Source: Mycolicibacter hiberniae
GTDB taxonomy: Bacteria > Actinomycetota > Actinomycetes > Mycobacteriales > Mycobacteriaceae
DNA length: 64,000 bases
Assembly (NCBI RefSeq): GCF_010729485.1
Contig: NZ_AP022609.1
Span: forward strand, 496,001-560,000
Direction: 5' to 3'
Below are positions 6,612 through 39,175 of this stretch, one piece after another (position 1 is the first letter of the stretch; every line of letters starts with the position of its first letter). The notes under the pieces were generated by a model. The model had not been told where the DNA came from. It searched no databases and saw only the letters and a list, made by a program, of their open reading frames with translations. Position numbers and translations under genes: made by a program.

Positions 6612-8255
6612 ATGACCACTCAGCAGACCGAGTTGCCGGTGGCTGGCAATACCTTGCTCGACGGCGGTACTGGCGTCGGCGCCGAGGATTCCCCTGATCC
6701 GACCGGCCCTTCGCGGCTGCAGTCCGCGGTCTCCCATGTCGCTGAGGTGACCGCGCTGCCCCCCTTGTCGGCGCCGGTCTCCGACACAGTTGCGTTGCTG
6801 CCTGCAGCTGAGAGGTCTCTTCATACACGGTGGCAACACCGTTACGGGAAATGCCTTATGGCAACCGATTTCGCCGTTCTGAGCGCCGTTGTGGCGGTGG
6901 CGCAGATCCTGCGATTCGGAACCGTGTCAAACGGCAGTCTGTGGGCGGGAGCCGGTTCCGTGGGTTACGCGGGGGTCTCGGTACTGATCGTCTGTGCGTG
7001 GTCCCTGGGCCTGGCGATCTATCACACCCGTGCGCCACAGGTGATCGGAGCAGGACCCGAGGAGTTCCGCCGGGTGTGGACGGCCACCTTCTCGGTCTTC
7101 GGGGCCCTCGCCGTCGTGTCCACCCTGTTGAAGCTCGACATCGCGCGAGGCTATCTCGCGATCGCGTTTCCGCTCGGTCTTGTCGCGTTGTCCGCCAATC
7201 GCCGCGTGGCGCGCGCCTATATCTCGGCGCAGCGGCGCCGCGGGCGCTTCCTTACTGCCGTGCTCGCGATCGGAGAGCTCCGATCGGTCGCCGCCCTCGC
7301 GCGGTCGCTGACCCGGCATCCCGCCGACGGCTACGCCGTGGTCGGGGTGTGCACCCCCGGCGGCCCGCAACGCGGAGAGCTGGTCGTCCCGGATCTCGGG
7401 CGGCTGCGTGTGTTCCCCTACCAGGACGATATTCGGTACGCGATAGCGGCCTCGCGGGCTGACACCGTGGCGTTGACCTCGACGGCCGAGCTGGGGCCCG
7501 AAGGCGTCCACGACCTGTCGTGGCAGTTGGAGGAGCTCGGAGTCGACCTTGTCGTCTCGCCGGGAATCGTCGACGTAGCCGGCCCGCGGTTGACCGTGCG
7601 CCCGGTGGCCGACCTACCGCTGATCCAGGTTGACAAGCCGCAATATCAGGGAGCCAAGCAGTTTCAAAAGCGCGCATTCGACGTGTGCTTTTCCCTGCTG
7701 GCGCTGTTGGCTGCCGGCCCGATCATGATCGTCGCCGCCGTGGCCGTGAAAGCGACCGGCCCGGGCCCGGTCTTCTATCGTTCGGAACGCATCGGTCTGG
7801 ACGGCCTGCCATTTCGGATGATCAAGTTCCGCACCATGGTTGTCGATGCTGACCGCCAACTGGCGCATCTGGTCGACCTCAACGACAGCGTCGGCGGTGT
7901 GCTGTTCAAAATCCGCAAGGACCCCAGAGTCACTCGGGTGGGCAGGCTGCTGCGCCGCTACAGCATCGACGAACTCCCGCAGTTCATCAACGTGCTGCGG
8001 GGAGAGATGAGCGTAGTCGGGCCCCGGCCACCACTGCCGGGCGAAGTCGAAGCCTATGACCACCGGGTCCGTCGCCGGCTTCTGGTCCGTCCCGGCATCA
8101 CCGGACTGTGGCAGATAAGCGGCCGCTCCGACCTGTCTTGGGAGGACTCGGTGCGGTTGGACCTCTCCTACGTGGAGAACTGGTCGATGCTCAGCGATTT
8201 GGCGATCGCCGCGAAAACCGTCGGCGCGATCGGGGGTGGGAAAGGCGCGTACTGA
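6612..8255 (+). CDS. Initiating polyprenyl-phosphate sugar-phosphate transferase
   Basis: A 547-residue membrane enzyme that should start glycan assembly by moving a sugar-1-phosphate from a nucleotide sugar to a polyprenyl phosphate. The N-terminal half has several transmembrane segments (from about residue 77, DFAVLSAVVAVAQILRF) and a CoA-binding-like middle domain. The C-terminal ~200 residues are the bacterial sugar transferase (WbaP/CpsE/WcaJ) domain, with KRAFDVCFSLLALLAAGP, FRMIKFRTM, YSIDELPQFINVLRGEMSVV, GPRPPLPGE and RPGITGLWQISGRS. It heads the plus-strand run of heptose and PKS genes. The transferred sugar cannot be told from sequence. Genes of this type usually mark exopolysaccharide or O-antigen loci. 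Confidence 0.93.
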   Translation: MTTQQTELPVAGNTLLDGGTGVGAEDSPDPTGPSRLQSAVSHVAEVTALPPLSAPVSDTVALLPAAERSLHTRWQHRYGKCLMATDFAVLSAVVAVAQILRFGTVSNGSLWAGAGSVGYAGVSVLIVCAWSLGLAIYHTRAPQVIGAGPEEFRRVWTATFSVFGALAVVSTLLKLDIARGYLAIAFPLGLVALSANRRVARAYISAQRRRGRFLTAVLAIGELRSVAALARSLTRHPADGYAVVGVCTPGGPQRGELVVPDLGRLRVFPYQDDIRYAIAASRADTVALTSTAELGPEGVHDLSWQLEELGVDLVVSPGIVDVAGPRLTVRPVADLPLIQVDKPQYQGAKQFQKRAFDVCFSLLALLAAGPIMIVAAVAVKATGPGPVFYRSERIGLDGLPFRMIKFRTMVVDADRQLAHLVDLNDSVGGVLFKIRKDPRVTRVGRLLRRYSIDELPQFINVLRGEMSVVGPRPPLPGEVEAYDHRVRRRLLVRPGITGLWQISGRSDLSWEDSVRLDLSYVENWSMLSDLAIAAKTVGAIGGGKGAY

Positions 8256-8293
8256 GCTCCTGAATCGGAACACACAAAGAATCGAGGGGTGGG

Positions 8294-8374
8294 ATGGACC
8301 GGCGTATAGCGCACCAGGGAGTCGAACACGAATGTGACCGCGATCTTCGCGAGGTCAAGGCGCGTCCATCATGA
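8294..8374 (+). CDS. Possible 26-residue upstream peptide coupled to gmhA
   Basis: An ATG behind GAGGGGTGGG opens a 26-codon frame (MDRRIAHQGVEHECDRDLRE...) whose TGA overlaps the gmhA ATG as ATGA. That arrangement is typical of translational coupling and could be a leader peptide or a real small protein. No conserved family is recognised. It may be a chance frame in the 115-base gap between the sugar transferase and gmhA. Confidence 0.3.
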   Translation: MDRRIAHQGVEHECDRDLREVKARPS

Positions 8375-8982
8375 GCGCTGTGGCCACCGCTTACACCACC
8401 CAGTATCTGGAGGAGGTGAACAAGATTGCCGCACTGGTGGATCCGGCCACGATCGACCGGATGATCCAGCTGTTGTGCGGAATCCGGGAAAACGGGGGAC
8501 GGTTGTTCGTCCTGGGGGTAGGCGGCAGCGCCGGCAACGCCGGACACGCAGTCAATGACTTTCGCAAGATCTGCGGGATGGAAGCCTACGCGCCCACCGA
8601 TAACGTGTCGGAGCTGACCGCTCGGGTCAATGACGACGGCTGGGAGAGCTGCTTCATCAATTGGCTGAAGGGCAGCCGGCTTGGGTCCCGCGACGCGGTG
8701 CTGGTGTTCTCCGTCGGCGGCGGGAGTCTGGAACGAAACATCAGCGGCAACATCGTGCACGCGGTGCGGCACGCCAAGACTATCGGTGCGACCGTCTTGG
8801 GCATCGTGGGCCGCGACGGTGGCTACACCGCGCAGCAGGCCGACGCCTGCCTCGTCATCCCCACCTTGAGCCCCGAGACCGTTACGCCTCATGCCGAGTC
8901 CTGGCAGGCGGTGGTGTGGCACCTGATCGTCTCCCACCCCGACATGAAGGAACACGAGATGAAGTGGGAGTCGACCCGGTGA
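8371..8982 (+). CDS. gmhA: Sedoheptulose-7-phosphate isomerase
   Basis: GmhA converts sedoheptulose-7-phosphate to D-glycero-D-manno-heptose-7-phosphate, the first committed step of heptose synthesis. The 203-residue protein is a single SIS domain with the phosphate-binding signature RLFVLGVGGSAGNAGHAVNDF and a second serine-rich loop VFSVGGGSLERN. The C-terminal helix TPHAESWQAVVWHLIVSHP matches the GmhA active-site helix. M. tuberculosis has a homologue (Rv0113) in a different locus. Its stop overlaps the start of gmhB, so the two are translationally coupled. Confidence 0.93.
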   Translation: MSAVATAYTTQYLEEVNKIAALVDPATIDRMIQLLCGIRENGGRLFVLGVGGSAGNAGHAVNDFRKICGMEAYAPTDNVSELTARVNDDGWESCFINWLKGSRLGSRDAVLVFSVGGGSLERNISGNIVHAVRHAKTIGATVLGIVGRDGGYTAQQADACLVIPTLSPETVTPHAESWQAVVWHLIVSHPDMKEHEMKWESTR

Positions 8983-9584
8983 CCGCGGCGGTGTTTCTGG
9001 ATCGAGACGGAGTGCTAAATGAGTTGATCTTCAATCCGGCGACGGGCCAGTACGAGTCACCCCACAGGCCCGAGGATCTGGTCGTGATCGACGGCGTCAT
9101 ACCGGCACTGCGGCGTTTGGCCCGAGCTGGGTTCGCGCTCTTCGTGGTGTCCAACCAGCCCAGCTACGCCAAGGGCAAGACCACGTTCGAGAACATCCAG
9201 GGCATCCACCGTCGGCTGGAGGGTTCCTTGAGCGCCAATGGGATCGCCTTTGGCGACTATTTCTACTGTTATCACCACCCGGACGGGATCGTGCCGGGGT
9301 ATTCGCAGAAGTGCCGGTGTCGCAAGCCGATGCCGTACTTCCTGTTGAAGGCGGCCAGCGAGCGCGGTGTCGATCTGGCCACGTCGTGGATGGTGGGCGA
9401 CCAGGACACCGACGTGGAATGCGGTCAGCGCGTGGGCTGCAGGACGGCGCTGGTCACGAACGCGCATTCGGCTGCGAAGAGGGGTTGTTCGCGGCCCGAC
9501 GTCACCGCGACGGCGTTGTCGCACGTTGTAGACCTGATTGTCCGTTGGAAGGGAGGTGGGGACAATGGCCCCGCTGAAGATTGA
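8979..9584 (+). CDS. gmhB: D,D-heptose bisphosphate phosphatase
   Basis: A 201-residue HAD-superfamily phosphatase that should remove the 7-phosphate from D-glycero-D-manno-heptose-1,7-bisphosphate. Motif I is FLDRDGVLNE (Asp8 and Asp10), motif II is VVSNQ, and motif IV is GDQDTD. A Cys-x-His...Cys-x-Cys set (Cys97, His99, Cys112, Cys114) has the spacing of the GmhB structural zinc site. I chose the GTG at 8979 because it overlaps the gmhA stop (GTGA) and puts motif I right at the N-terminus, as usual for the family. The end overlaps the transaldolase gene by 20 bases. Confidence 0.92.
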   Translation: MTAAVFLDRDGVLNELIFNPATGQYESPHRPEDLVVIDGVIPALRRLARAGFALFVVSNQPSYAKGKTTFENIQGIHRRLEGSLSANGIAFGDYFYCYHHPDGIVPGYSQKCRCRKPMPYFLLKAASERGVDLATSWMVGDQDTDVECGQRVGCRTALVTNAHSAAKRGCSRPDVTATALSHVVDLIVRWKGGGDNGPAED

Positions 9585-10296
9585 CATCTACGCCGACGGC
9601 GCTGATGTGGATGAGATGCTGGCAGCGCTCAAGCAGCCTTACATCAGAGGCTTTACGACGAACCCGACGTTGATGCGTAAGGCCGGTGTGACCGACTACG
9701 AGGCCTTCGCCTCCCAGGTGCTGGGCCATATCAAAAGCCTGCCCATCTCCTTCGAGGTGTTTTCCGACGATTTCGACGAGATGGACCGGCAAGCGCGTTT
9801 CATCGACTCGTGGGGCTCGAACGTCTACGTCAAGATTCCGGTGACCAATACCGCGGGCGCGTCGGCGGCAGGACTCATCCGAACTTTGGCGTCGGATCGC
9901 ATCAAGTTGAACGTGACGGCGTTGTTGACCGTCGATCAGGTCTGGGAAGTCGCCGGCGAGCTGAATCCGGACGTGCCGGCGATCGTGTCCGTCTTCGCCG
10001 GGCGCATCGCGGACACCGGCGTGGACCCTGTCCCGATCATGAAGGAGTCGTTGAAGATCCTGCAGTACCGGCCTAAAGCGAAGTTGTTGTGGGCCAGTCC
10101 ACGTGAGCTGCTGAATCTGGTTCAGGCCGATCAGGTGGGTTGCCACGTCATCACGGTGACGCCCGACATCCTCAAGAAGCTGCCGATGCTCGGCCGCGAC
10201 CTGGCGCAGCTTTCCCTGGACACCGTGAAGATGTTTCACAACGATGCGCACACGGCTGGATTCTCGCTCCGGACGCGTACCGATGCCTACATCTGA
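9565..10296 (+). CDS. Transaldolase-like protein
   Basis: A 243-residue member of the transaldolase/fructose-6-phosphate aldolase superfamily. The beta strand [10 protein letters not shown] places the Schiff-base lysine at residue 90. An early Asp (DIYADGAD) and [12 protein letters not shown] match the family N-terminus. It is much shorter than the housekeeping mycobacterial Tal (about 370 residues), so it is a second, pathway-linked copy. Wedged between gmhB and gmdA, it may supply sedoheptulose-7-phosphate to GmhA; this is inferred from context. The ATG at 9565 follows GGGAGGTGGGG and lies inside the end of gmhB. Confidence 0.87.
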
Positions 10297-10309
10297 GGTG
10301 GAAGTTCCC

Positions 10310-11332
10310 GTGAAGCGAGCCCTGATCACCGGAATCACCGGGCAAGACGGCTCCTATCTCGCCGAATTGCTGTTGAGCAAGGGTTACGAAGTCCATGGGC
10401 TCGTGCGCCGGTCCTCGACGCTCAACACATCGCGGATCGACCACCTCTACGTCGATCCACACGAGCCCGCCGCACGACTGTTCTTGCACTACAGCGATCT
10501 GACCGACGGTGCCCGCCTGGTGACATTGCTGAGCACCATCGAACCGGACGAGGTCTATAACCTTGCGGCACAGTCGCATGTGCGCGTCAGCTTCGACGAG
10601 CCGGTGCACACCGGTGACACCACGGGTATGGGATCCATGCGGCTGCTGGAAGCCGTCCGGATCGCCAAGGTGGGATGCCGCTTCTACCAGGCGTCTTCCT
10701 CGGAGATGTTCGGGGCGTCACCACCACCGCAGAGCGAGGAGACCGCCTTCTATCCGCGGTCACCGTATGGCGCGGCAAAGGTCTACTCGTACTGGGTGAC
10801 GCGTAACTACCGGGAGGCGTACGGCATGTTCGCCGTCAACGGCATCTTGTTCAATCACGAGTCACCCCGGCGCGGTGAGACTTTCGTGACCCGAAAGATC
10901 ACCCGCGCCGCCGCCAGCATCAAAGCCGGCATGCAGTCCCATCTCTATGTGGGCAATCTGGCTGCTGTTCGCGACTGGGGGTATGCCCCGGAGTATGTCG
11001 AAGGCATGTGGCGGATGCTGCAGGCTCCCGTACCGGACGACTTCGTTCTTGCGACCGGCTTCGGCTACAGCGTGCAGGATTTTGCCCAGGCAGCATTCGA
11101 TCATGCCGGCCTCGATTGGGAGAAGCACGTCAGATTCGACGAACGCTATCTGCGACCGAGCGAGGTCGATTCGCTGATCGGCGACGCCACCAAGGCAGCG
11201 AGAACGCTCGGCTGGACGGCATCCACACACACAGCCGAGCTGGCACGAATCATGGTGGACGCCGACATTGCCGCCCTGGAATGCGCGGGCCGGCCATGGA
11301 TCGACAATCCGATGCTTGCTCTCCGGAGATGA
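10310..11332 (+). CDS. gmdA: GDP-mannose 4,6-dehydratase (GmdA orthologue)
   Basis: A 340-residue extended SDR enzyme, the same length as M. tuberculosis GmdA (Rv1511) and very close in sequence. It has [16 protein letters not shown] at the NAD(P) site, [18 protein letters not shown], a catalytic YGAAK, and [16 protein letters not shown]. It converts GDP-mannose, or possibly GDP-manno-heptose, to the 4-keto-6-deoxy sugar. The GTG start at 10310 lies six bases after GAGGTGGAA. Because heptose genes surround it, a heptose substrate is a real alternative; the sequence does not settle this. EpiA follows with an ATGA overlap. Confidence 0.93.
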
Positions 11333-12303
11333 GCGGCCCGATGGGCACGCCACCGTGCCCCCTCGATCGTGATTCCCCGGTATACATTGCCGGGCACCTC
11401 GGTCTGGTCGGCTCAGCCCTGTTGCGGAGGTTCCGAACAGAGGGATTCACCAACATTGCGCTGCGGTCGCGCGGTGAGCTCGACCTGACCGACCGGGCCG
11501 CGACGTTGGACTTCATCATGGAGTCAGCGCCGCAGGTCATTGTCGTCGCTGCCGCCAAAGTCGGCGGGATCTTGGCCAATAACACCTATCCGGCCGAATT
11601 TCTGTCGGAAAACCTGCAGATCCAGCTCAACCTGCTCGACGCAGCGGCTGCTGCGCGGGTGCCGCGCCTGCTTTTTCTCGGCTCTTCGTGCATCTATCCG
11701 AAGTACAGCCTGCAGCCCATCAATGAGAGCGCACTGCTCACCGGCCGCCTGGAGCCGACAAACGACGCATACGCGATCGCGAAGATCGCCGGAATCCTGC
11801 AGGTTCAGGCAGTCCGGCGTCAGTTCGGCCTTTCGTGGATCTCTGCGATGCCGACCAATCTCTATGGTCCCGGTGACAACTTCGCGCGATTCGGCTCGCA
11901 TCTGCTGCCGGCCCTGATCCGCCGGTATGAAGAAGCCAGAGCGCAAGGCGCCCTGGAGGTGACCAACTGGGGCAGCGGAACCCCGCGGCGGGAGCTGCTG
12001 CATGTCGACGACCTTGCGAGTGCGTGTCTTTACATTCTGGAGCACTTCGACAGCCCCACTCACGTCAATGTGGGCACTGGCGTGGACCACACCATCGCCG
12101 AGATCGCCCGGATCGTTGCCGACGCAGTCGGTTACCGAGGTGAAACCCGCTGGGATACCGGCAAGCCGGATGGAATGCCGCGCAAACTGCTGGACGTCTC
12201 TGTTTTGGCGGATGCGGGGTGGCGGTCGGAGATCGGGCTGCGTGACGGTATCGAGTCGACGGTGGCGTGGTACCGCGACAACGCCGAGATGGCGAGGAGA
12301 TGA
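11329..12303 (+). CDS. epiA: GDP-4-keto-6-deoxy-sugar epimerase/reductase (EpiA orthologue)
   Basis: A 324-residue extended SDR of the GDP-fucose synthetase type, matching M. tuberculosis EpiA (Rv1512). Visible features are [18 protein letters not shown] at the N-terminus, [10 protein letters not shown], catalytic YAIAKIAG and [14 protein letters not shown]. It should epimerise and/or reduce the 4-keto-6-deoxy product of GmdA. The start ATG overlaps the gmdA stop. A second in-frame ATG lies at 11341. The gmdA-epiA pair is known from the M. tuberculosis Rv1511-Rv1512 glycolipid region; here it is embedded in heptose genes. Confidence 0.93.
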
Positions 12304-12305
12304 TC

Positions 12306-13640
12306 ATGCGCATCTGCATCGTCAGTCTCAACTATGAGCCGGAGGAGTCCGGTATCGCTCCGTATACCACCGGCATGGCGGTAGGCCTGGCCGAGCGAGG
12401 GCACGACGTCGAGATTCTCACCGGCCTGCCGCATTACCCGCAGTGGCGCGTCAACCCGGCATACCGTGGCCTGTCCGGAACCCTCAAAGCGATAAACGGG
12501 GTTGTCGTACGACGTTTCGCGCACTACGTGCCCGCGGAATCTACGCTGCGCAACCGGCTGAAGTTGGAAGCCAGCTTCGGTGCCCGGGTGGTGTCGGCGG
12601 GTTGGAGCAAGCCGGAACTTGTGCTCACCGTCAGCCCGGCACTGGTCGCCAGCGCGATGGTCATCGCCCGGGCGAGGGCTGCCGGCATTCCGGTGGGCCT
12701 GATCGTTCAGGACCTGTACGGCAAGGGAGTGGTCGAGACTGCTTCCATGCCTGCGCGGATGGCGGCGCTGGCAGTGCGGTTTGAAGGTGCTGTCCTGAGT
12801 AGCGCGACGGGAACAGCCGTCGTGCACGACCATTTCGCAGACGCGGCGATCAAGATGGGCGTGGGTCGCAAGCGAATCGTCGTCATCCGGAACTGGACGC
12901 ACATCGAACCGCCCCAGGCGGTGAACACGTCGGAAGTGCGCCGCAGGCATGGATGGCGGTCGCGGGAACGCATCGTTTTGCACAGCGGGAACATGGGTTT
13001 GAAGCAGGGCCTGGAAAATGTTGTCGCTGCGGCCCGATTGGCCGACGAACGTGGTGTCGACATCCGGTTCGTGCTGTTGGGTGACGGCAACCAGCGCAAG
13101 TGCCTGCAACAGTTGGCCAAAGATGTGCAGCGGCTGGAATTCAAGGATCCGTTACCGGCCGACGAGTATCGCCAGGTGCTGGCGTGCGCTGATGTTCTCC
13201 TGGTCAACGAACGGCCCGGTGTGGGGCAGATGGCGGTACCGAGCAAGTTGACGTCCTACTTCTCCGCGGGCCGGCCGGTCCTGGCCGCTACCGACGCCAA
13301 CGGTGTGACCGCTGCGGAGGTCCGGGACTCGGGGGCCGGGCTCGTGATCCCCGCCGGCGATCCCGCGGCTCTGCTGGGGACGGCCGTTGGTCTGGCTGAC
13401 AGCGCGGAATTCGGAGTGGGGCTTGGTCGTTCCGGCCAGCGCTACGCGCAGCGCCTGCTGAGTCGGGAACGGGCGCTGGACGCATACGAAGCCTGGTGCC
13501 ACGGGTTGACCCGCACTCCGCCGGTTGCAACGCAGTATCGCGGCAACGGTTCGGCTGCCCGGGCTACCCGGCACCGACCGTTTCGCCGCCTGCCGGTAAT
13601 GCCGGCGCGCGGGGATCTCAAACCGGCGTCCGGCACCTGA
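12306..13640 (+). CDS. GT4-family glycosyltransferase (WcaI-like)
   Basis: A 444-residue GT-B glycosyltransferase. The N-terminus MRICIVSLNYEPEESGIAPYT is typical of WcaI-type colanic-acid fucosyltransferase relatives. The C-terminal donor domain has LHSGNMGLKQGLENV, FVLLGDGNQR and VPSKLTSYFSAGRPVLA. It probably adds a sugar from the GDP-sugar route encoded just upstream; donor and acceptor are unknown. The ATG at 12306 sits six bases after GAGGAG, which favours it over the ATG at 12300. The last ~40 residues are basic and low in complexity. Confidence 0.9.
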   Translation: MRICIVSLNYEPEESGIAPYTTGMAVGLAERGHDVEILTGLPHYPQWRVNPAYRGLSGTLKAINGVVVRRFAHYVPAESTLRNRLKLEASFGARVVSAGWSKPELVLTVSPALVASAMVIARARAAGIPVGLIVQDLYGKGVVETASMPARMAALAVRFEGAVLSSATGTAVVHDHFADAAIKMGVGRKRIVVIRNWTHIEPPQAVNTSEVRRRHGWRSRERIVLHSGNMGLKQGLENVVAAARLADERGVDIRFVLLGDGNQRKCLQQLAKDVQRLEFKDPLPADEYRQVLACADVLLVNERPGVGQMAVPSKLTSYFSAGRPVLAATDANGVTAAEVRDSGAGLVIPAGDPAALLGTAVGLADSAEFGVGLGRSGQRYAQRLLSRERALDAYEAWCHGLTRTPPVATQYRGNGSAARATRHRPFRRLPVMPARGDLKPASGT

Positions 13641-13700
13641 CAGCGATGCCGACCGAGGGCATCCGAGCGTGAACCCCTTTCATCAGAGAGAGGAATCGAC

Positions 13701-30521: not shown

Positions 30522-31826
30522 TTTGAGCACCCGATGGTTGTCGGAGACGTAGACGTTGCCGGCGCGATCCACCGCCACACCGCTTCGGGGATTGCCTGCG
30601 CCGGTGCCGAACGCCAACTCCACCTGGCGGGTCGACTGGGCGGGCAGCTCGACCACCCGTTGGTGAAGACCGTCGACGACGTAAACGTTCCCCTTGGTAT
30701 CCACCGCCACACCGTTGGGCGGATTCGGTCCGGTGAAACGGGTGAACGGGAGCTTCACCGGGGTGCTCGACCCGGCGAGCAGTTTCAGCACCTGGGCGTT
30801 GCCGTAACCGGTGAGGTACTTGTTGCCCGCCTGATCCACCGCAATCCCGGTGGGAGCTGTCAGCCCGACGAACGGCAGCTTCAGTTCGACCGGGGCCTTC
30901 GAACCGGCCATCAGGATCAGCGCCCGGTGGTTGCCGTAGTCGGTCACGTAGACGTTGCCGGCAACGTCGACTGCGGTCCCGGTGGGAGCTTTAAGGCCGG
31001 TGAACGGCAGCTTGGTCTGTTTTTTTGACTTACCTGACAGTTTCAGCACCGAGTTGCTTCCGTAGTCGGTGACATAGACGTTGCCGGCTTGGTCCACCGC
31101 CACGCTGTCTGGATTGAGCAAGCCGGTAAACGGCAGCATGGCCTGGCGATTCGATCCCACCGGCAGTTTCAGCACCCGCGCATTGCCGGTGTCGGCGACA
31201 TAGATGTTGCCGGCGCGGTCCACCGCCACACCGCCCGGCCTGTCCAGATCGGTGAACGGCAATTCCAGCTGCGTCGTCTGCAGGTCGGCTTGCGGGCCGG
31301 CCGCATCGGCGGCGACCGCAGTCGACGGCGTGGCGTCGGGCTGGGGCGTTGTCGATGGCATATCCCACGGCGGCCCGCACAACTTGAGCCCTTCGTTGAT
31401 CAAGTCGGTCATGGATGTTCGCGATACACCTGGGTTGCCCTCGTGTCCGCCCGCGGCGGCCAGCCAGATGTGCTCGGAATCCGGCTGCCAACTCTTATCC
31501 GTGGCCTTACTCGCCAGCGCGTTGAGCGCGTAGGTGTCGTTGGTGTCGGTGGAGGTGAAGGTGACAGCACCGCCATCGCACGCAAGGACTCCCGAGTCCA
31601 CCTTCAAGGGCCAGGTGCCCTTGAAGGTGGACTTGTCGATCTTCTCGGCGTGCACCGCGGTATGGCCGCAGGCAGTTCCGCAACAGGCCAATAGGACAAG
31701 GATCGCGGCGATGAGCCCGACAGGTGGTGTGGTGCTGGACCATCGACCCGTGTTGGCCCTTCTCGGAGGCTGCGCCGGCACCGACCAGCGCGACACAGGT
31801 GCGGCGTTCACGGGTGTGGGCATCAT
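30507..31826 (-). CDS. DUF2511-NHL beta-propeller lipoprotein
   Basis: A ~439-residue predicted lipoprotein. A hydrophobic leader (VGLIAAILVLLACCGTACG) ends in a lipobox cysteine. Next comes a DUF2511-like domain (STFKGTWPLKVDSGVLACDG, then TYALNALASKA). After a linker, six NHL repeats follow, each with the pattern LPF-x-GL-x-P-x-GVAVD-x-AGNVYVTD. That is a beta-propeller like the extracellular sensor of the mycobacterial kinase PknD, but here without a kinase. It may bind glycan or protein on the outer face. The start is uncertain: ATG at 31826 or GTG at 31859. It lies downstream of the O-antigen ligase gene, separated by 178 bases. Confidence 0.85.
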   Translation of the reverse strand: MMPTPVNAAPVSRWSVPAQPPRRANTGRWSSTTPPVGLIAAILVLLACCGTACGHTAVHAEKIDKSTFKGTWPLKVDSGVLACDGGAVTFTSTDTNDTYALNALASKATDKSWQPDSEHIWLAAAGGHEGNPGVSRTSMTDLINEGLKLCGPPWDMPSTTPQPDATPSTAVAADAAGPQADLQTTQLELPFTDLDRPGGVAVDRAGNIYVADTGNARVLKLPVGSNRQAMLPFTGLLNPDSVAVDQAGNVYVTDYGSNSVLKLSGKSKKQTKLPFTGLKAPTGTAVDVAGNVYVTDYGNHRALILMAGSKAPVELKLPFVGLTAPTGIAVDQAGNKYLTGYGNAQVLKLLAGSSTPVKLPFTRFTGPNPPNGVAVDTKGNVYVVDGLHQRVVELPAQSTRQVELAFGTGAGNPRSGVAVDRAGNVYVSDNHRVLKLSRE

Positions 31827-32004
31827 TCGGAGATTGTTGAGCGCAACCACGCCCGCCACAAGCGTGATCGACTACCCTAATTCGGCCCGCGGGCCGGTAA
31901 GGTAGTCCGGTAATACCGGGCGGGTATGTGCGCCGGCGATGCCCGGTGTCCGGAGGGCAGAATCCCCTGGTGGCCCTGCCGCGGCCACCCGAGCGTGTCC
32001 GCTG

Positions 32005-33267
32005 TCAGCGGGACGAGGCCGTCAGGTTGGACTCCAGTTCCGGATCGGCGGCCGACTTCGGTTCGTACAGCATCAGCGGCAGTAGGGCAGCTATCGGCAT
32101 AATGCCCAAAAAGTATGGTACGTAGACGGATTCGAAGACATTGATCGACAACACGCACGCGTAGTAGGTGAAGAGGTAGGGCAGTGCGGCACTCGCTGTC
32201 GTCGTCAGCTGCAGAATCACGCCGCCGACCACGACCAGCGCCCCCCAGGCGCCCACCGAGATCAATATGTCGTACCAACCGTTGTGGGGCGAGTAGTTGA
32301 CATCGAAAAGTGCGTTCTGGGCGACCAGCCACCAGTAGCTCGGCCCATGGCCGAAGACCGGCGCCTGTCCGATCGCGTCACGCCCCGCCTGCCAGACGTA
32401 GCCGCGTTCGGCGTATGACGAGCCGCTGAATTTCACGAAGAGCGGGAAGAACGACGCGCAGAACCCGACGGCCAGGGCGGTGGATGCCACCCGCAGCTGC
32501 CACCGCAGGCTCGTCCTCGCCTTGATGAGCAGTAGCGCGACCGAGACCGTCACCAGCGCGAAGATCGCAGTCCTGCTCATCGCCAGCAGTTGAAAGGCCC
32601 CGACGCCGGCCAGCAGCACCATGCAGCGCCGCAGCGTCAAGGTCGCGCAGGCGAAGGGGATAAGCAGCACCGTCGCTATGCCGAGCACATTGCCGTTCGC
32701 CGACAATGGCGAGGTCAGCACCTGCGTGACGGCTCCGCACTTGTCGAGGCGACAGTGGGTCAGGACCCGGCCGGGGTTGACGATCACGGCCAGCGTCACA
32801 GCGGCCGACATCGCGAGCAGCGATACTTGCGCGGCCACGCTCAGCGTACGCACCGGTGTCACGCCCTGCTTGAGGACAACACCCATGAACAGTGCTCCCG
32901 CCATGATGAAATTGAGCACCTGCACACGCCCGGAGAACCAGACCGAGACGGCCGCGAACAGCAGTGAGGTGCCGATCAGCGCGGCGGGCAGGCTGACCTG
33001 GGTCCGTGACTCCCGCAGACCACGCACCACCCCAACCGTCGAACAGATCGCCGCGGGCGTGTACTGCAGGGCAGGAAAGAATCTGCCGGCCTGGTCCGGC
33101 GACGCCCAGATCAGAGGGCCGACGACATAGACGGTGATGAAGGGCCAGGCGGCCACCAGGAACACCCACAGCACAGTGAACCGATCTGCGCCCTGCAACA
33201 GGATGCGTGGGTCGCCGACCGCCACCCAGATCGATGCTGTTGCCGCCAAAAGAATCAGGATTGCCAT
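32005..33267 (-). CDS. O-antigen polymerase/ligase-type membrane protein (Wzy/WaaL-like)
   Basis: A 420-residue polytopic membrane protein with about eleven predicted helices and a large outer loop near residues 285-330. The loop and following helix contain GHGPSYWWLV and SPHNGWYDILISVGAWGAL, which match the O-antigen ligase/polymerase (Wzy_C) pattern with its conserved His-Asn. It should polymerise lipid-linked repeat units or transfer the finished polymer to an acceptor. The two roles are not separable by sequence. It follows the Wzz-like gene by 36 bases. Such proteins are unusual in mycobacterial loci. Confidence 0.85.
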   Translation of the reverse strand: MAILILLAATASIWVAVGDPRILLQGADRFTVLWVFLVAAWPFITVYVVGPLIWASPDQAGRFFPALQYTPAAICSTVGVVRGLRESRTQVSLPAALIGTSLLFAAVSVWFSGRVQVLNFIMAGALFMGVVLKQGVTPVRTLSVAAQVSLLAMSAAVTLAVIVNPGRVLTHCRLDKCGAVTQVLTSPLSANGNVLGIATVLLIPFACATLTLRRCMVLLAGVGAFQLLAMSRTAIFALVTVSVALLLIKARTSLRWQLRVASTALAVGFCASFFPLFVKFSGSSYAERGYVWQAGRDAIGQAPVFGHGPSYWWLVAQNALFDVNYSPHNGWYDILISVGAWGALVVVGGVILQLTTTASAALPYLFTYYACVLSINVFESVYVPYFLGIMPIAALLPLMLYEPKSAADPELESNLTASSR

Positions 33268-33303
33268 CGCAGCGCAACGCCCCCTCGTCGTACCGCTCGT
33301 TCC

Positions 33304-34497
33304 CTACCCGATGCGTGCGCGCTCCACGCTGTCGCCGTCGGCGCTGGTGCGTTCGATCACCTTCGCGCTGTCGACAATCACCATCACCGCCAGCCGACCG
33401 TTCTCGTTGAGTTGGTCGGCGAAGCGCCGCAATTCGTCCCATCGCGAATCTGCCGAGATGATCCCGACGTGCATCGGCCGTGTCGCGGTGCCCACCGCAG
33501 CCAACGACATGGCCCGGCGTGCCGCGAGCCGGGACTCGGTGATGCGCAGCGCCAACAGGTCACTCATCAACACTTCCCAGCGGCTGTGCCGGCCATGTCC
33601 GTCGCTGTTGTGGGGCTTTCGGCTGGCGGCGACAATCAGCCAGCCCTCGGCATCGCCGAAGCAGGCTCGCAGGTACCGGAGCGCCGGACGTGGCGTCGCC
33701 GGGTGGGCGGCTTGGCGCTCCGGGGGGTCCAGCGAAATTGACGCGCCCGCTGCGACTAGCCGCTCGGCGATGCGATCCACCCCCTGGCTGAGCTGAGCCG
33801 TCTGTCGGTGCCTGGACCGCCGCCCCGCCAGGTGGGTGCGTCCGCCGACCTCGATCATGCCGATCACCGGCACGTCGCCGATGGTGCGCAGATCAGGCAG
33901 GTAACCCAGTTTTGGGTTGCGGCGTGCGCGGTAGCAGCTGGCCACCAGAGCTACCAACGCCAGCGCCAGTGCGGCGTTGACGATGTTGTTGGCTGTCCGC
34001 GGACGTGAGCGGTAGGGCGGGACGGCGGCGGGGTCGACGACTCGGACGTGAACGGCCCCTTGCTTTTCTAATTCCGACGCAGCGGTGACGAATTCCTGCG
34101 CGACGGTCACGACGTACTTGGTTGCCAGTTCACCGGTGGGTGCTGTGGCAGTGATATCGATCAGGGCCGTGTCCCGTGGCGACGTGATCGTCAGGTTGTT
34201 CCGAAGATCTTCGGCGGTGGTGGGCAGGCCGTAAACGACGACAGCTCGTTGTAGCAGCGCCGGACTGGTCAGCAGGGTCAGGAAGTCACGCGCCCGGCGT
34301 TGCGAAAGAAAGAGCGCGGCAAGGTCGGCGAACGGTCTTTGGTCGGGATCGGCGACAACGATGACGCGGGCGGTTGTGGTGTAGATGGGCTGCTGCCGCA
34401 GCGAATACGCCAGCCCCATCAGGGCACCGAGAAGGAGAGCGACGACGACTGCGCGGCGGCTGTCCAGCAGGACTCGGCCGAAGACGCTGAGCTGCAC
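33304..34497 (-). CDS. Wzz-like chain-length determinant with long cytoplasmic tail
   Basis: A ~397-residue polysaccharide co-polymerase-like protein. TM1 is near residues 12-30 (AVVVALLLGALMGLAYSL). An extracytoplasmic Wzz domain runs to about residue 170, with TM2 at NNIVNAALALALVALVASCY. A ~200-residue C-terminal region stands where a tyrosine autokinase would be in Wzc-type proteins, but I see no Walker A motif, so it is probably not an active kinase. The GTG at 34497 follows AGGTGGGG. It diverges from a second Wzz-like gene, with only 117 bases between the starts. Likely role: setting polymer length with the Wzy-like protein. Confidence 0.82.
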   Translation of the reverse strand: MQLSVFGRVLLDSRRAVVVALLLGALMGLAYSLRQQPIYTTTARVIVVADPDQRPFADLAALFLSQRRARDFLTLLTSPALLQRAVVVYGLPTTAEDLRNNLTITSPRDTALIDITATAPTGELATKYVVTVAQEFVTAASELEKQGAVHVRVVDPAAVPPYRSRPRTANNIVNAALALALVALVASCYRARRNPKLGYLPDLRTIGDVPVIGMIEVGGRTHLAGRRSRHRQTAQLSQGVDRIAERLVAAGASISLDPPERQAAHPATPRPALRYLRACFGDAEGWLIVAASRKPHNSDGHGRHSRWEVLMSDLLALRITESRLAARRAMSLAAVGTATRPMHVGIISADSRWDELRRFADQLNENGRLAVMVIVDSAKVIERTSADGDSVERARIG

Positions 34498-34614
34498 CCC
34501 CCACCTGCCTTCGACGAATTCAGTGGCGTTGGGACCATGCCATTGTGCGCCGCCAAAGCTTCCTCTGAACAGAAAACCGACCGATCGGCTCTGTGTTGGG
34601 TAGCATTGGGGGCT

Positions 34615-35238
34615 GTGCGCAGGCGTTATGTGGTCTGGCTGACTGCGGCAACGATTGTCGGTGCTTTCGTTGGCGCCCTGTGGAGCTGGGCGGGGGCCAA
34701 CGAATACCGCGCGAGCACCCGACTGTTCGTCACCACCAACGCCGTCGACGTCAGCGACGTGTACCAGGCGACGCTGGCAGGTCAGCAGCGTGTGCTGACC
34801 TACAAGGTGCTGGCGTCGGATCTGAAGGTGCTCTCCAACGCGGTTCGCCGGGCCGGGACGAACAGCAGTCCTCTCGATTTGGCGCAGCGTCTGCATGTCG
34901 ACGTGCCGCCGGCCACCATCATTTTGGACATCGGCGTCGATGACACCAATTCCGAGACGGCGGCCACCCTCGCTAACGCGGTGGCCGACGAGCTGATCGC
35001 CACAATCAACGAGCTGGAACGTCCCTTGGGCGGTGGCCCACCGCCGGTCGGCGCGACAGTGGTGCAGCGTGCGGCGCCGTCTGCTGCCACATTGCAGTCG
35101 ACGCTCAACCCGGTGCTGGTCGCCGCGGGAGCGTTCGCCGGATTGATCGTGGGGCTCGTCGTCGCGGTGGCTGTCAAACGCCGTCTGCTGCCTGAGCTTC
35201 GCGCCGCACGTGGAGAATTCAGCCAGGCGCAGAGCTGA
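34615..35238 (+). CDS. Second Wzz-like chain-length protein
   Basis: A ~207-residue Wzz-domain protein. TM1 is VVWLTAATIVGAFVGALWSW and the periplasmic-type domain begins YRASTRLFVTTNAVDVSDVY. A C-terminal TM (LVAAGAFAGLIVGLVVAVAV) precedes a short basic tail. It has no cytoplasmic domain, so it is of the classical short Wzz/YveK class. The start is uncertain: GTG at 34615, behind TAGCAT that could be a -10 box, or ATG at 34537. It overlaps the glycoside hydrolase gene by one base (TGATG), so the two are coupled. A second chain-length protein next to the first suggests a heteromeric co-polymerase. Confidence 0.8.
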   Translation: MRRRYVVWLTAATIVGAFVGALWSWAGANEYRASTRLFVTTNAVDVSDVYQATLAGQQRVLTYKVLASDLKVLSNAVRRAGTNSSPLDLAQRLHVDVPPATIILDIGVDDTNSETAATLANAVADELIATINELERPLGGGPPPVGATVVQRAAPSAATLQSTLNPVLVAAGAFAGLIVGLVVAVAVKRRLLPELRAARGEFSQAQS

Positions 35239-36287
35239 TGAACGCCAGGCGCCGGCTGCTCATCGCCGTCGCCGTGGTGGTCGTCTTGAACTTGACGCTG
35301 TTCACCTCGGCGTTGCCGCGTTGCCAGCAGGTGCGCGCGGCCGCAGCGCCTTTCGGGGTGGCCAGCGTGGCCACCATGTGGAGCGACTCTCCGCAAGGCT
35401 ACGCAGATGAGGCGCAATCGATCCGCGATGCCGGCGCCGGCTGGATCCGAATCATCGTGCAGTGGCACAAGATCGAACCCTCGATTGGCGCCTATGACTG
35501 GTCGACCGGCGACAACGCGGTGCAGGCCGCCAGCGCGGCCGGCCTCAGCATTTTGATGTGCATATCGGGTCCGGCGCCGGTATGGGCACAGGCTCCGGGC
35601 GCCGACCCCAACGCGGTCGGCAGCCCGCCGGCAGACCCGGTTGCGTTCGGGCAGATCGCCCGTGCCATCGCTGACCGCTACAAGACTGCGGTGGGAGCGT
35701 GGGAGATCTGGAACGAGCCCAACGCGCCGGAGTTTTTCACGCCCGTCGACGTCGGCCGCTACGCAGCACTGCTGCGGGAGGCCTACATGAACATCCATGC
35801 CGCCGCACCGCAGTCGATCGTGATGTCTGGGGGTTTGTCATCGTCGAACAGCGGCATCGACTCGGTGGACTTCATCCAGCAGCTCTACGCCGCCGGGGCG
35901 GGTGACGCATTGGATGCGATTGCTCTGCACCCTTATAGCTATCCGTACCCGATCACCGAGGACCCGCTGGGGCGAGGTGCTGCCGTGGCGCAGGTGCATC
36001 AGCTGATGGCCGCGCACGGCGAGGGCCGCAAGAAGATCTGGATCACCGAGTATGGCCAAGCCACCGGCACGTCGCCGTTTGCCGTTCCCGGTGAGCGACA
36101 GGCCGAGATCCTGGTGGCTTTCCTGCAATGGGCAAGCTCACTGGGCTACTTGGGGCCGCCCTTTCTGTTCACCAGTCGCGACCTGAGCCCGGATACATCT
36201 AACGCGGAATTCAATTTCGGGATCTACGGGGTCGACTACACGCCCAAGCCTGCCGTCGAGGCGATCAAAACCTTGGCTCGGTCCTGA
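35238..36287 (+). CDS. Secreted clan-A glycoside hydrolase, PslG-like
   Basis: A 349-residue exported TIM-barrel hydrolase. A signal or anchor peptide (RRLLIAVAVVVVLNLTLFTS) precedes the catalytic domain. The acid/base is Glu160 in EIWNEPN and the nucleophile is Glu271 in IWITEYG, the spacing expected of GH5/GH39-type enzymes. In Pseudomonas, the hydrolase PslG sits inside the Psl exopolysaccharide operon and trims the polymer. A similar editing or release role is likely here, inferred from context. It is translationally coupled to the short Wzz-like protein. Confidence 0.88.
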   Translation: MNARRRLLIAVAVVVVLNLTLFTSALPRCQQVRAAAAPFGVASVATMWSDSPQGYADEAQSIRDAGAGWIRIIVQWHKIEPSIGAYDWSTGDNAVQAASAAGLSILMCISGPAPVWAQAPGADPNAVGSPPADPVAFGQIARAIADRYKTAVGAWEIWNEPNAPEFFTPVDVGRYAALLREAYMNIHAAAPQSIVMSGGLSSSNSGIDSVDFIQQLYAAGAGDALDAIALHPYSYPYPITEDPLGRGAAVAQVHQLMAAHGEGRKKIWITEYGQATGTSPFAVPGERQAEILVAFLQWASSLGYLGPPFLFTSRDLSPDTSNAEFNFGIYGVDYTPKPAVEAIKTLARS

Positions 36288-36326
36288 TCGGCGAGCCGCT
36301 GCCGGATGTGCTGGGTGCGGCACGTC

Positions 36327-37070
36327 CTAGCGGGACCGGCCGGGCGCCGGATGTTGTTGACGCAGCGCGTGGATCACGGGCTGGGCAAGACGGTCGGCGA
36401 CCACCTGCTGGCCGGCGTGGCTGAGTTGCAGATGATCGGGCGACACGAGCTTGTCGTCCCCGGCGAACCAGTCTTCGGCGATCGGGTCGATGAACGGGGC
36501 GCCTGCTTCGGCGGCGGCGTCACGAATCATGTTGCGGGCGGCCAGGATCGCTTCGTCAGGGGGCTCGCGCCGATACCAGCTGGGCCCGACTATCAGCATG
36601 CCCGCCCGGGGCGCAGTGGACTTGACGTGGTCCAAGGTGGCGACGGCGGCATCGTGTAGGGCGGGCAGCGAGTTGACGTCGTTGGCCCCGCCCGCCAGCA
36701 GCACCAGATTGGTGTCGCGATTGACGCCCCGGGTCACCTGCTCGCCGAACGTGGGCGAGCTCGGAACGGTGACGGTGTATCCCGCACCGCCACGGCTGAA
36801 GTTGCGGAAATACGCATCGATTCCGGACTGCCCGGCCAGTCGTTGCAGGCTGGCAGGCCAGTTCTTGCTGCCGAAGCCGCCGGCCATGATGCCGGCCGCG
36901 AACTCGTCGCCGATCACCACAGCCTGCAGCGCTCCAGCCGGGGTTCGTGATGCCGTTTCGGTGGCCGGCGACAGCGCCCCGGTCGACGGTTTCGGCGGCG
37001 GGGTGCGGCCGGCGCACGCGGCGACCAGCACGGCAAGCGTGAGCAACAGCGCCCCCACCGAGCGCGTCAT
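36327..37070 (-). CDS. SGNH-fold lipoprotein with altered catalytic residues
   Basis: A 247-residue lipoprotein with a lipobox at Cys19 (LAVLVAAC). The fold is SGNH/GDSL-like: block I is VVIGDEFAAG, block III is LLAGGANDVN, and the last block is SPDHLQLSHAG. In normal enzymes block I reads GDS and the last block D-x-x-H. Here Glu56 takes the place of the catalytic serine, and Gln takes the place of the histidine. The protein is therefore likely not a normal esterase; it may bind glycan without cleaving it. Its start overlaps the flippase stop by four bases. Confidence 0.82.
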   Translation of the reverse strand: MTRSVGALLLTLAVLVAACAGRTPPPKPSTGALSPATETASRTPAGALQAVVIGDEFAAGIMAGGFGSKNWPASLQRLAGQSGIDAYFRNFSRGGAGYTVTVPSSPTFGEQVTRGVNRDTNLVLLAGGANDVNSLPALHDAAVATLDHVKSTAPRAGMLIVGPSWYRREPPDEAILAARNMIRDAAAEAGAPFIDPIAEDWFAGDDKLVSPDHLQLSHAGQQVVADRLAQPVIHALRQQHPAPGRSR

Positions 37071-38305
37071 GGCACCACATTAGCAGCGCGAAGGCGCCGT
37101 ACCGCAAGCATCAATCCGGGCAGCACGATCAGTTCGCCCAGCAGTTGCACCAGCGCCAGCGACGCGATCGGTCCGCGTGTCGCCAGGATTGCCAACAGGA
37201 CCAAAGCCACGCTGTTTCCCCCCGCGATGCAGGCGGTCGCCTGATTGGGGTAGCCCGCCGCCACCAGCATTGCCGCGAACGACTGTGAGTAGGCGGAAAG
37301 CCCGGCGGCGGCGACCATTCCGGCCACCAACGGAAGTGCCGCAGCGTAGGGCGGGCCGGCGATGCGCGTCACGAGGATGCCCGCCGGCCACGCGCACAGC
37401 AGGGCGACGCCCATGTAGTACAGGCACACGCGGGAGAACTGGTGGTAAAGGTCCCAGGCATGTCCGGTGTGCAGACGGCGCGCCAGTTCCGGAATGACCA
37501 CGGTCGCCATCGAGGCCGGCAGTAACAGGACTGGGCCGACCACCTTGGTGGCCACCCCGTACAGGCCGGCGACGGCAGTGCTGGCCAGGGCGGCCACGAC
37601 CGGTACCTGCAGCTGAAACAGCACGTTGGACAGCGAAAGGCCCCACCATCCCATCGCGCCGCGGGTGGCTCCGACCATGTCGCCCCGGGTACCGGCGACC
37701 GAGGTCATCGGCGTGACCGCCGCGATCACCAGGGGGATCGCGAACGCGACCGCGATCAACGAGTAATTTGCCGGCCGGCCCATCACGAGGTAGGCCACCA
37801 CGGCGGCGCACGGGACGATGCGCTGCGTGGCCACCAGCCAGCTCGAGTACCGATGACTGCCGATGCCGGCGAAGTGGTTCTGGGCGTAGGTCTGCAGGGT
37901 GTCCCCGGCACCCCAGACGATGCCGGCAGCCACCGTGGCGGGTAGGCGCAGCAGCGCCGCGCCGGACAGCAGCACCGTGACAAGCGCGAGATTGCTGCCG
38001 AGGTGCATGAGGTAGAGCGCACGGATCAGGCTGAGTGGCTGCCGGCCGGAGAGCTGTTGCATCGGAGAGTGTTCGGCTGCCACCCGCAGCACCCGCGCCG
38101 GTGCGCCGAAGCCGAACACGATCCCGGCCACCGTGGTCACCGCCCCGGCCGCAATGAATTCGCCGTAGGAGTGGACCGGCGAGATGCGCGCGAGCAGCAG
38201 CAGGGTCAACCCCAGTCCCACCGAGCTCACGATGCGCGAGGAAAAGCGCCACGCCACGCTCCGCGCCGTGTGCGGAGGCTGATGGTTGACCTGCCCGGTG
38301 TCCAT
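37067..38305 (-). CDS. Wzx-type polysaccharide flippase
   Basis: A 412-residue polytopic membrane protein with about twelve helices and the general layout of the MVF/polysaccharide transporter family. Examples are SSVGLGLTLLLLARI near the N-terminus, ALASTAVAGLYGVATKVVGP in the middle, and a second half of paired helices. It should flip lipid-linked repeat units across the plasma membrane for polymerisation. It lies between the GT2 gene (21 bases upstream) and the SGNH gene (overlapping). Substrate specificity cannot be read from the sequence. Confidence 0.85.
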   Translation of the reverse strand: MDTGQVNHQPPHTARSVAWRFSSRIVSSVGLGLTLLLLARISPVHSYGEFIAAGAVTTVAGIVFGFGAPARVLRVAAEHSPMQQLSGRQPLSLIRALYLMHLGSNLALVTVLLSGAALLRLPATVAAGIVWGAGDTLQTYAQNHFAGIGSHRYSSWLVATQRIVPCAAVVAYLVMGRPANYSLIAVAFAIPLVIAAVTPMTSVAGTRGDMVGATRGAMGWWGLSLSNVLFQLQVPVVAALASTAVAGLYGVATKVVGPVLLLPASMATVVIPELARRLHTGHAWDLYHQFSRVCLYYMGVALLCAWPAGILVTRIAGPPYAAALPLVAGMVAAAGLSAYSQSFAAMLVAAGYPNQATACIAGGNSVALVLLAILATRGPIASLALVQLLGELIVLPGLMLAVRRLRAANVVP

Positions 38306-38326
38306 CCGCGAACGAAGGATGCCCGA

Positions 38327-39175
38327 CTACTGCAGCCGGGCCGACAGCCACCGCCGCAGAGTCCGGTAGGTCGGGGTGAGTCGCAGTTTGAACACCGGTA
38401 TCTGGGCCAGATGAAACGCGGCGCCCCCCAACCCGTAGAGCTTTTCGACCGGGGTCCGCGAGTAACGCATTCGGACGTCGTAGGACTCCCTGACGAACGT
38501 CGGCCACATCTTGGCGGCTTTGGTTGCATCGTGGAAACGCAGCGCCCCGATCCCCACCGGCACGTAGGCCTGGCGCAAACCGGTCTGCGCGATACGTACC
38601 TGCAGGTCGTAGTCCATGGAGCAGTGCAGCCCCTCGGCGATGCCGCCCAGTTCGCGCAGCGTGCTGTCGCGCATCACGATCGACCCGGAGAACGCCGTGG
38701 GGCCTTGGAGCAGCAGTTTCTTCAGCTCCATCTGGCGCCCGGGGAACAAATCCACCGACGTGCCGTCCTCCCGGATCATGCGGCTGTCCCCGTAGAAGAG
38801 GTCGGCGTCGGGATGCTCGGCGATGGCCGTGCGCAGCCCGTCGAGCGCATCGGGCAGGAGCACGTCGTCGGAGTTCAGCCAGATCATCCACGACGGTTTT
38901 GCGCGGGCCAGGGCGCGGTTGAGGGCGTCGGACTGTCCGCGGTCGGGTTCGATCACCGGCTTGACCCGCTGATCGGCGCGCGCCAGCGCCGCTATGACGT
39001 CTTGCGTGCCGTCCGTGGATCCAGCGTCTTGAATCAGGAGTTCGTCGTCGGGACCCATCTGGTCCAGCGCACTGCGAAATGCAGTCTCGGCGAATCGCCC
39101 CGCATTATACGACGGTACGAGGATGCTGAAAACCGGTGTGGACCCGGGTTTGTCACCGCGCTGCTGGGTGCTCAC
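38327..39175 (-). CDS. GT2-family glycosyltransferase
   Basis: A 282-residue inverting GT-A glycosyltransferase. The nucleotide-binding N-terminus is FSILVPSYNAGRFAETAFRS, a DAGSTDGT segment follows, and the metal-binding motif is WLNSDD. The acceptor-side segment GLHCSMDYDLQVRIAQTG resembles WcaA-type enzymes of capsule and O-antigen loci. The start is a GTG. It is the first gene of the minus-strand operon GT2-flippase-SGNH and lies nearest the tRNA end of the locus. Donor and acceptor are unknown. Confidence 0.88.
   Translation of the reverse strand: MSTQQRGDKPGSTPVFSILVPSYNAGRFAETAFRSALDQMGPDDELLIQDAGSTDGTQDVIAALARADQRVKPVIEPDRGQSDALNRALARAKPSWMIWLNSDDVLLPDALDGLRTAIAEHPDADLFYGDSRMIREDGTSVDLFPGRQMELKKLLLQGPTAFSGSIVMRDSTLRELGGIAEGLHCSMDYDLQVRIAQTGLRQAYVPVGIGALRFHDATKAAKMWPTFVRESYDVRMRYSRTPVEKLYGLGGAAFHLAQIPVFKLRLTPTYRTLRRWLSARLQ

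What the first reader, a model, noticed from the sequence alone, without database searches (positions are those of the whole stretch)
6612..39175. Wzx/Wzy-type polysaccharide locus in a mycobacterium
Within one continuous locus there is an initiating sugar-phosphate transferase (6612), a flippase (37067), an O-antigen polymerase/ligase-type protein (32005), two Wzz-like proteins (33304, 34615), GT4/GT2 glycosyltransferases and a PslG-like hydrolase (35238). This set is what a Wzx/Wzy-dependent polymer needs. Mycobacterial surface glycans such as LAM, arabinogalactan, alpha-glucan and lipooligosaccharides are not known to use this route. The sequence shows the gene set directly; that it makes a secreted polymer is inference.
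Basis: partly seen in the sequence, partly recalled or inferred. Interest (0 to 1): 0.9.

Follow-up and report, generated by a model that had tools for sequence, protein, structure and literature searches.

The report
Capsule-type sugar-polymer island in a mycobacterium
This non-tuberculous mycobacterium carries a 36-kb gene island that looks built to make and export a sugar polymer, probably with heptose, by a route (Wzx/Wzy) familiar from other bacteria's capsules; its key gene families are common in the mycobacterial genomes sampled, yet our open-access paper searches found no account of the route there.

Summary

The machinery reading holds; its rarity does not: PF02397 is in 231 and PF04932 in 219 of 297 sampled Mycobacterium genomes. 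Partial listings of four open-access searches showed no description of the route in mycobacteria. The polymer, its heptose, polymerase rather than ligase, and its route to the surface are inferred.

The parts
3634..39478 (.). genomic island, about 35.8 kb, between the glmU 5' end and the 3' end of tRNA-Gln; G+C 0.655 against 0.693 and 0.696 in the flanks
   Evidence: absent in 10 of 10 Mycolicibacter relatives; in the 8 of these aligned, homology ends at 3614-3633 and resumes at 39469-39479; G+C
4120..4419 (+). PE protein, 99 aa
   Evidence: NCBIfam LipY model hit over profile positions 3-86, E 7e-19, below that model's cut-off; reading this as a PE domain is recalled knowledge; a 64% match stands at the head of the G071 locus (under my wrong label 'tetR')
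4439..5914 (+). PPE protein (PPE-SVP type)
   Evidence: PF00823 230 bits; a PPE lies upstream of the initiating transferase in 24 of 24 testable PPE-rich loci
5999..6280 (+). WXG100 (Esx) protein, 93 aa
   Evidence: PF06013 62.5 bits; TIGR03930 over cut-off
6298..6582 (+). WXG100 (Esx) protein, 94 aa
   Evidence: PDB 3ogi 'ESAT-6-like protein 6', E 8e-54
6858..8255 (+). initiating polyprenyl sugar-phosphate transferase (CpsE/WcaJ type); ORF open from 6612
   Evidence: TIGR03025 407.6 bits, cut-off 295.55, matching residues 85-547 of the longer ORF
8371..8982 (+). GmhA-like sugar isomerase (SIS)
   Evidence: best PDB matches are phosphoheptose isomerases, E 5e-12; TIGR00441 51 bits, below its cut-off 209
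8976..9584 (+). GmhB-like HAD phosphatase
   Evidence: PRK08942 heptose bisphosphatase 115.7 bits, below its cut-off 178; histidinol-phosphatase domain over cut-off
9565..10296 (+). transaldolase (would supply sedoheptulose 7-phosphate)
   Evidence: TIGR02134 349 bits, cut-off 282
10298..11332 (+). GDP-mannose 4,6-dehydratase (Gmd)
   Evidence: TIGR01472 485 bits, cut-off 415; PDB 1n7g 433 bits against 117 for GDP-heptose dehydratase 7us5
11329..12303 (+). GDP-L-fucose synthase-like (Fcl)
   Evidence: NF047922 422 bits, below its cut-off 500
12300..13640 (+). GT4 glycosyltransferase, WcaI-like
   Evidence: PRK10307 239.8 bits, below its cut-off 276
13701..20042 (+). reducing type I polyketide synthase, MAS-like (KS-AT-DH-ER-KR-ACP)
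   Evidence: mycocerosic acid synthase 9d2z, 830 bits over residues 3-2110; domains
20057..20767 (-). left-handed beta-helix acyltransferase 1
   Evidence: weak Hexapep and WcaF-type hits, below cut-offs
21152..21778 (-). left-handed beta-helix acyltransferase 2
   Evidence: weak WcaF-type hit, below cut-off
22094..22834 (+). FkbM methyltransferase
   Evidence: PF05050 68.6 bits
22926..23669 (+). SAM methyltransferase
   Evidence: PF13489/PF08241
23700..24347 (-). unknown protein, conserved (81% in M. sinensis E1572)
24495..25634 (+). GT4 glycosyltransferase
25659..26618 (+). NDP-sugar epimerase/dehydratase
26644..27501 (+). short-chain dehydrogenase
27503..28480 (+). GFO/IDH/MocA oxidoreductase
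28489..29460 (+). HddA-like heptose kinase (GHMP)
   Evidence: PDB 3k85 heptose kinase E 1e-46; NF049969 160.8 bits, below its cut-off 600; 87% identical genes in G067 and G151
29457..30173 (+). sugar-1-phosphate nucleotidyltransferase, HddC by position
   Evidence: MurU model 109 bits, HddC model 68 bits, both below cut-off; next to HddA in four genomes: window, G297, G067, G151
30177..30521 (+). small predicted membrane protein, 114 aa, no family
   Evidence: 71% in M. sinensis E1572
30507..31655 (-). NHL-repeat beta-propeller protein
32005..33267 (-). Wzy_C protein: putative polymerase
33304..34497 (-). Wzz-like chain-length regulator 1
   Evidence: PF02706 26.4 bits, cut-off 25.5; two predicted TM segments
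34615..35238 (+). Wzz-like chain-length regulator 2
   Evidence: TIGR01006 E 6e-11, below its cut-off; hhalign 100% with regulator 1, profiles partly overlapping
35238..36287 (+). PslG-like glycoside hydrolase
   Evidence: PDB PslG E 2e-26; WNEP and WITEYG motifs
36327..37070 (-). SGNH/GDSL hydrolase
   Evidence: PF13472 51.5 bits
37067..38305 (-). Wzx-type flippase
38327..39175 (-). GT2 glycosyltransferase
39479..39551 (-). tRNA-Gln at the island's right edge

Best explanation
A horizontally acquired island makes a repeat-unit heteropolysaccharide by a Wzx/Wzy-dependent route. CpsE puts a sugar phosphate on polyprenyl phosphate; GT4/GT2 enzymes extend it with sugars that include a heptose (sedoheptulose 7-phosphate from the transaldolase, then GmhA, HddA, GmhB, HddC) and fucose (Gmd, Fcl); Wzx flips the unit; Wzy polymerises it under two Wzz-like proteins; the PslG-like hydrolase trims or releases it; acyl- and methyltransferases, and perhaps a MAS-type acyl chain, decorate it. 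Shown: the genes, their families or folds, conservation and island borders. Inferred: the order of reactions, the sugars, the polymer, the acquisition by transfer, and that PE/PPE/Esx proteins help at the surface.
Confidence: 0.75

Rival explanations
1. The island makes a species-specific lipooligosaccharide-like glycolipid: the oligosaccharide is built on polyprenyl phosphate, flipped, and moved once by the Wzy_C protein acting as a ligase to a methyl-branched acyl lipid made by the MAS-like PKS.
For: Full-length MAS-like PKS inside the island, two weakly matched acyltransferases, WaaL as best fold match of the Wzy_C protein and the WaaL-type motif.
Against: Among the predicted island proteins scanned with Pfam (the PE gene only with NCBIfam) there is no AMP-ligase, PapA-type acyltransferase or MmpL, which LOS loci need (recalled). 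Two Wzz-like proteins and a PslG-like endoglycosidase point to a polymer. Only one PF04932 protein in the genome, so a ligase reading leaves no polymerase of that family.
Confidence: 0.17
2. The island is a recently acquired, silent or decaying insertion with no product in this species.
For: Sporadic in Mycolicibacter: the site is empty in 10 of 10 relatives, 28.6 kb are deleted in M. engbaekii, lower G+C than the flanks.
Against: No stop codons in the aligned parts and dN/dS 0.05-0.40 for all 31 island genes compared with M. sinensis E1572; housekeeping prsA, glmU and mfd give 0.07, 0.18 and 0.15.
Confidence: 0.08

Closest known systems
Wzx/Wzy-dependent exopolysaccharide and capsule clusters, for example those proposed in Actinoplanes missouriensis (PMC13390465, passages)
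   Same: flippase, polymerase and Wzz proteins, glycosyltransferases and modifying enzymes in one locus; actinobacterial hosts
   Different: here with a putative heptose cassette, a MAS-like PKS and PE/PPE/Esx genes; mycobacterial outer membrane; no gene test yet
Pseudomonas Psl locus (PslG)
   Same: PslG-like hydrolase, E 2e-26, beside EPS machinery
   Different: only PslG was compared; the other Psl proteins were not tested
Mycobacterial LOS loci (recalled) and MAS-type lipid loci
   Same: MAS-like PKS plus glycosyltransferases
   Different: no AMP-ligase, PapA or MmpL in the island; polyprenyl-phosphate initiation and Wzy/Wzz instead
M. tuberculosis gca-gmhA-gmhB-hddA (Rv0112-Rv0115); called exclusive to tubercle bacilli in PMC10906988 (passages); Rv0113-Rv0115 listed as horizontally transferred in PMC3087520 (passages)
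   Same: a putative GDP-heptose gene set in a mycobacterium
   Different: here with a transaldolase, a nucleotidyltransferase and a Wzx/Wzy set; direct homology to Rv0112-Rv0115 was not tested

Membership tests
Wzx/Wzy-dependent polysaccharide locus | initiating polyprenyl sugar-phosphate transferase | tested here: met
   TIGR03025 407.6 bits against 295.55
Wzx/Wzy-dependent polysaccharide locus | Wzx flippase of the MOP superfamily | tested here: met
Wzx/Wzy-dependent polysaccharide locus | Wzy polymerase | tested here: inconclusive
   Wzy_C family and WaaL fold met; polymerase against ligase not decided
Wzx/Wzy-dependent polysaccharide locus | Wzz-type co-polymerase | tested here: met
   33304 just over the Pfam cut-off; 34615 by TIGR01006 (below its cut-off) and hhalign with partly shared profiles
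Wzx/Wzy-dependent polysaccharide locus | glycosyltransferases and sugar-nucleotide enzymes in the locus | tested here: met
   GT4 x2, GT2, Gmd, Fcl-like and others
Wzx/Wzy-dependent polysaccharide locus | Wza outer-membrane exporter (Gram-negative systems only) | tested here: not met
   no PF02563 match in the own genome; Gram-positive systems do without it (recalled)
Wzx/Wzy-dependent polysaccharide locus | a repeat-unit polymer that depends on wzy | not testable with these tools
   needs glycan analysis
GDP-heptose pathway | GmhA, HddA, GmhB and HddC activities | tested here: inconclusive
   GmhA and HddA have heptose enzymes as best PDB matches; all four are below the heptose models' NCBIfam cut-offs
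Mycobacterial LOS locus | AMP-ligase, PapA and MmpL partners of the PKS in the locus | tested here: not met
   none in the Pfam scans of the island's predicted proteins (PE gene by NCBIfam only)
PslG-type hydrolase | PslG homology with catalytic glutamates | tested here: met
   E 2e-26; WNEP and WITEYG motifs (which residues are catalytic is recalled)

The most novel reading that the evidence does not exclude
Mycobacteria have a widespread, unrecognised Wzx/Wzy polymer system whose loci, in PPE-rich species, carry their own PE/PPE (here also Esx) genes; these type VII secreted proteins would act as the outer-membrane conduit or anchor that takes the place of Wza. An independent link exists: ESX-5 and its substrate PPE10 are needed for capsule integrity in slow growers (PMC4900558, abstract and passages).
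Probability: 0.2. Interest if true: 0.85.

Novelty: new variant of a known kind. Interest (0 to 1): 0.62.

Why it matters
The mycobacterial capsule is described as alpha-glucan, LAM/arabinomannan, proteins and glycolipids (passages of PMC4900558 and PMC7261415). If these loci work, many mycobacteria make variable, capsule- or O-antigen-like polymers on their surface, with modular sugar cassettes. That would bear on serotypes, biofilms, phage receptors and diagnostics, and would pose a clear question: how a polymer made at the inner membrane crosses the mycomembrane. The natural deletion in M. engbaekii and ordinary gene removals make it testable.

Tried and rejected
Uniqueness was rejected: the families are common in the genus sample. 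A 6-deoxy-heptose route through the dehydratase at 10298 was considered and set aside: it is a GDP-mannose dehydratase by cut-off and by PDB score. A sequence link between the window's Wzx and the PF01943-type Wzx of other mycobacteria was not found. An att-like duplication of the tRNA 3' end at the left edge was looked for; only short matches of 28 bases or less, E 0.25 or worse, were seen. A first PPE check on 30 short loci found nothing; those loci reached too little upstream sequence, so regions of up to 20 kb were fetched and the test repeated. Foldseek alone found no Wzy match at E 0.001 or less; WaaL appeared only in the second look by VIA-align. The protein I first labelled 'tetR' (4120-4419, inside my 3799-4419 frame) is a PE protein; the TetR-like gene lies at 39640-40242 (my reading of the sequences). 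The idea that the locus of other PPE-rich genomes sits at the same point as this island was dropped: in G246 it is about 20 kb away on the prsA side of glmU. Paper searches on Wzx/Wzy, O-antigen polymerase or ligase and EPS in mycobacteria: (30 of 272, 5 of 5, 25 of 77 and 4 of 4 papers listed). Searches were searches on heptose and on Mycolicibacter, on ESX-5 and capsule. One listed paper on M. avium subsp. paratuberculosis with the words flippase and sugar transferase (PMC11026511) was not opened.
Full report
What was checked. The window lies at 496001-560000 of a complete 4.40-Mb genome. Its nearest named relatives by the flippase are Mycolicibacter engbaekii (96%) and M. sinensis E1572 (85%), so I take it for an M. 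terrae-group species, not a tubercle bacillus.

Borders. In 10 of 10 Mycolicibacter relatives in the genus sample (87-91% identity over prsA-glmU) glmU and mfd lie within about 0.9-1.5 kb of each other without the island; tRNA-Gln lies between them in the four of these scanned. In the eight of these ten aligned to the window, homology stops near the 5' end of glmU (window 3614-3633) and resumes at the 3' end of tRNA-Gln, window 39469-39479. The island is therefore about 3634-39478, with G+C 0.655 against 0.693 and 0.696 in the flanks. M. sinensis E1572 holds the same collinear island. M. engbaekii matches the window at 97% up to 5292 and at 96% from 33865, with the two points adjacent; 28.6 kb is missing, with the break inside the PPE gene and inside the first Wzz gene, which reads as a deletion. 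The initiating transferase is absent from its genome. No PF02397 match was reported for the ten relatives or for G225, which by contig number and coordinates is the M. engbaekii genome.

Sugars. The heptose reading rests on a GHMP kinase whose best PDB match is a heptose kinase (E 1e-46), a GmhA-like isomerase, a GmhB-like phosphatase and a nucleotidyltransferase. None reaches its heptose-pathway NCBIfam cut-off, so heptose is likely, not shown. A transaldolase, over its cut-off, would supply the precursor. In G067 and G151 the cassette GT4b-Epi-(UDP-sugar dehydrogenase-like)-SDR-GFO-HddA-HddC-GmhA-GmhB-Tal is collinear, with the shared genes at 65-87% identity, beside another Wzy_C gene. In the window the GmhA-GmhB-Tal part lies next to the initiating transferase instead. 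Gmd is a GDP-mannose dehydratase and suggests fucose. The PKS is MAS-like over its full length; no AMP-ligase, PapA or MmpL was found with it.

Selection. Against M. sinensis E1572, 34 of 34 genes compared (31 in the island plus prsA, glmU and mfd; the PE gene was not in the list) have dN/dS 0.05-0.40 and no stops in the aligned parts; prsA, glmU and mfd give 0.07, 0.18 and 0.15.

Distribution. Close relatives of this Wzy are rare: 3 of 297 genus genomes including its own, with protein-database relatives in Mycobacterium sp. JS623 and Mycolicibacterium novocastrense. The families are common: PF02397 in 231 of 297 and PF04932 in 219 of 297, 211 over the cut-off. Of the 76 genomes with a row in both truncated listings, 32 (own included) have the two within 35 kb; 30 of those 32, not the window's own and not G171, have a PF01943 match somewhere in the genome. 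HddA-like kinases at E 1e-20 or less are in 44 of 297, own included; 23 of the 44 lie within 50 kb of a listed PF02397 gene, 7 do not (6 on another contig, 1 at 68 kb) and 14 had no listed row.

PE/PPE/Esx. The island starts PE-PPE-Esx-Esx. Of the regions fetched around initiating transferases for this test, 25 are from genomes with 20 or more PPE matches. Two of these, G147 and G239, are cut by a contig end; the other 23 all have a same-strand PPE gene starting within 6 kb upstream and a Wzx match just downstream; in two of them (L070, L087) the Wzx frame looks interrupted. In the 18 regions from genomes with 8 or fewer PPE matches none has it; one of these (L102) is cut by a contig end and one (L057) holds under 5 kb upstream. 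The loci are related by descent, so these are not 24 independent events, and the regions were chosen from the listed top rows, not drawn at random. An independent paper links ESX-5 and PPE10 to capsule integrity (PMC4900558, abstract and passages); PPE10 itself was not compared here.

Literature. Four searches for Wzx/Wzy, O-antigen polymerase or ligase, or EPS clusters in mycobacteria (30 of 272, 5 of 5, 25 of 77 and 4 of 4 papers listed) showed no paper describing the route in this genus; titles and the starts of abstracts were seen, and passages of three papers (PMC7831098, PMC13390465 and, PMC7261415). The library is open-access only, so print elsewhere is not excluded. The envelope review PMC7261415 has no occurrence of Wzx or flippase in its main text. 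Automatic annotation already names such proteins 'O-antigen ligase' and 'polysaccharide biosynthesis', so the genes are catalogued, but I saw no functional account.

Verdict.

Noticed in passing
window 44816-53890: A 9-kb stretch is absent from M. sinensis E1572, and in 8 of 10 other relatives the mazG neighbour is followed at once by the gene at 53882: a second, independent insertion a few kb from the island.
   Followed up: partly
L006 14446/14447 (M. engbaekii): Clean 28.6-kb deletion of the island with about 2 bases of microhomology at the join; Wzx, GT2, the SGNH hydrolase, the PslG-like gene and the second Wzz-like gene remain, while the initiating transferase and the island's Wzy are gone.
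   Followed up: yes
L098 (G071) and L092 (G239): Two other PPE-rich genomes have a close (93% and 86%) Esx gene of the window's type upstream of an initiating transferase, so the PE-PPE-Esx head is not private to this island.
   Followed up: partly
G246, G264, G061, G232, G046, G282, G270, G273, G130, G276, G210, G006, G045, G109, G107, G223: In these 16 PPE-rich genomes the initiating transferase lies about 16-33 kb from prsA-glmU, on the prsA side, the other side from this island (read by eye); the neighbourhood may be a recurrent site.
   Followed up: no
window 36327-37070 and 30507-31655: The SGNH hydrolase and the NHL-repeat protein have the highest dN/dS of the island genes compared (0.40 and 0.36).
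   Followed up: no
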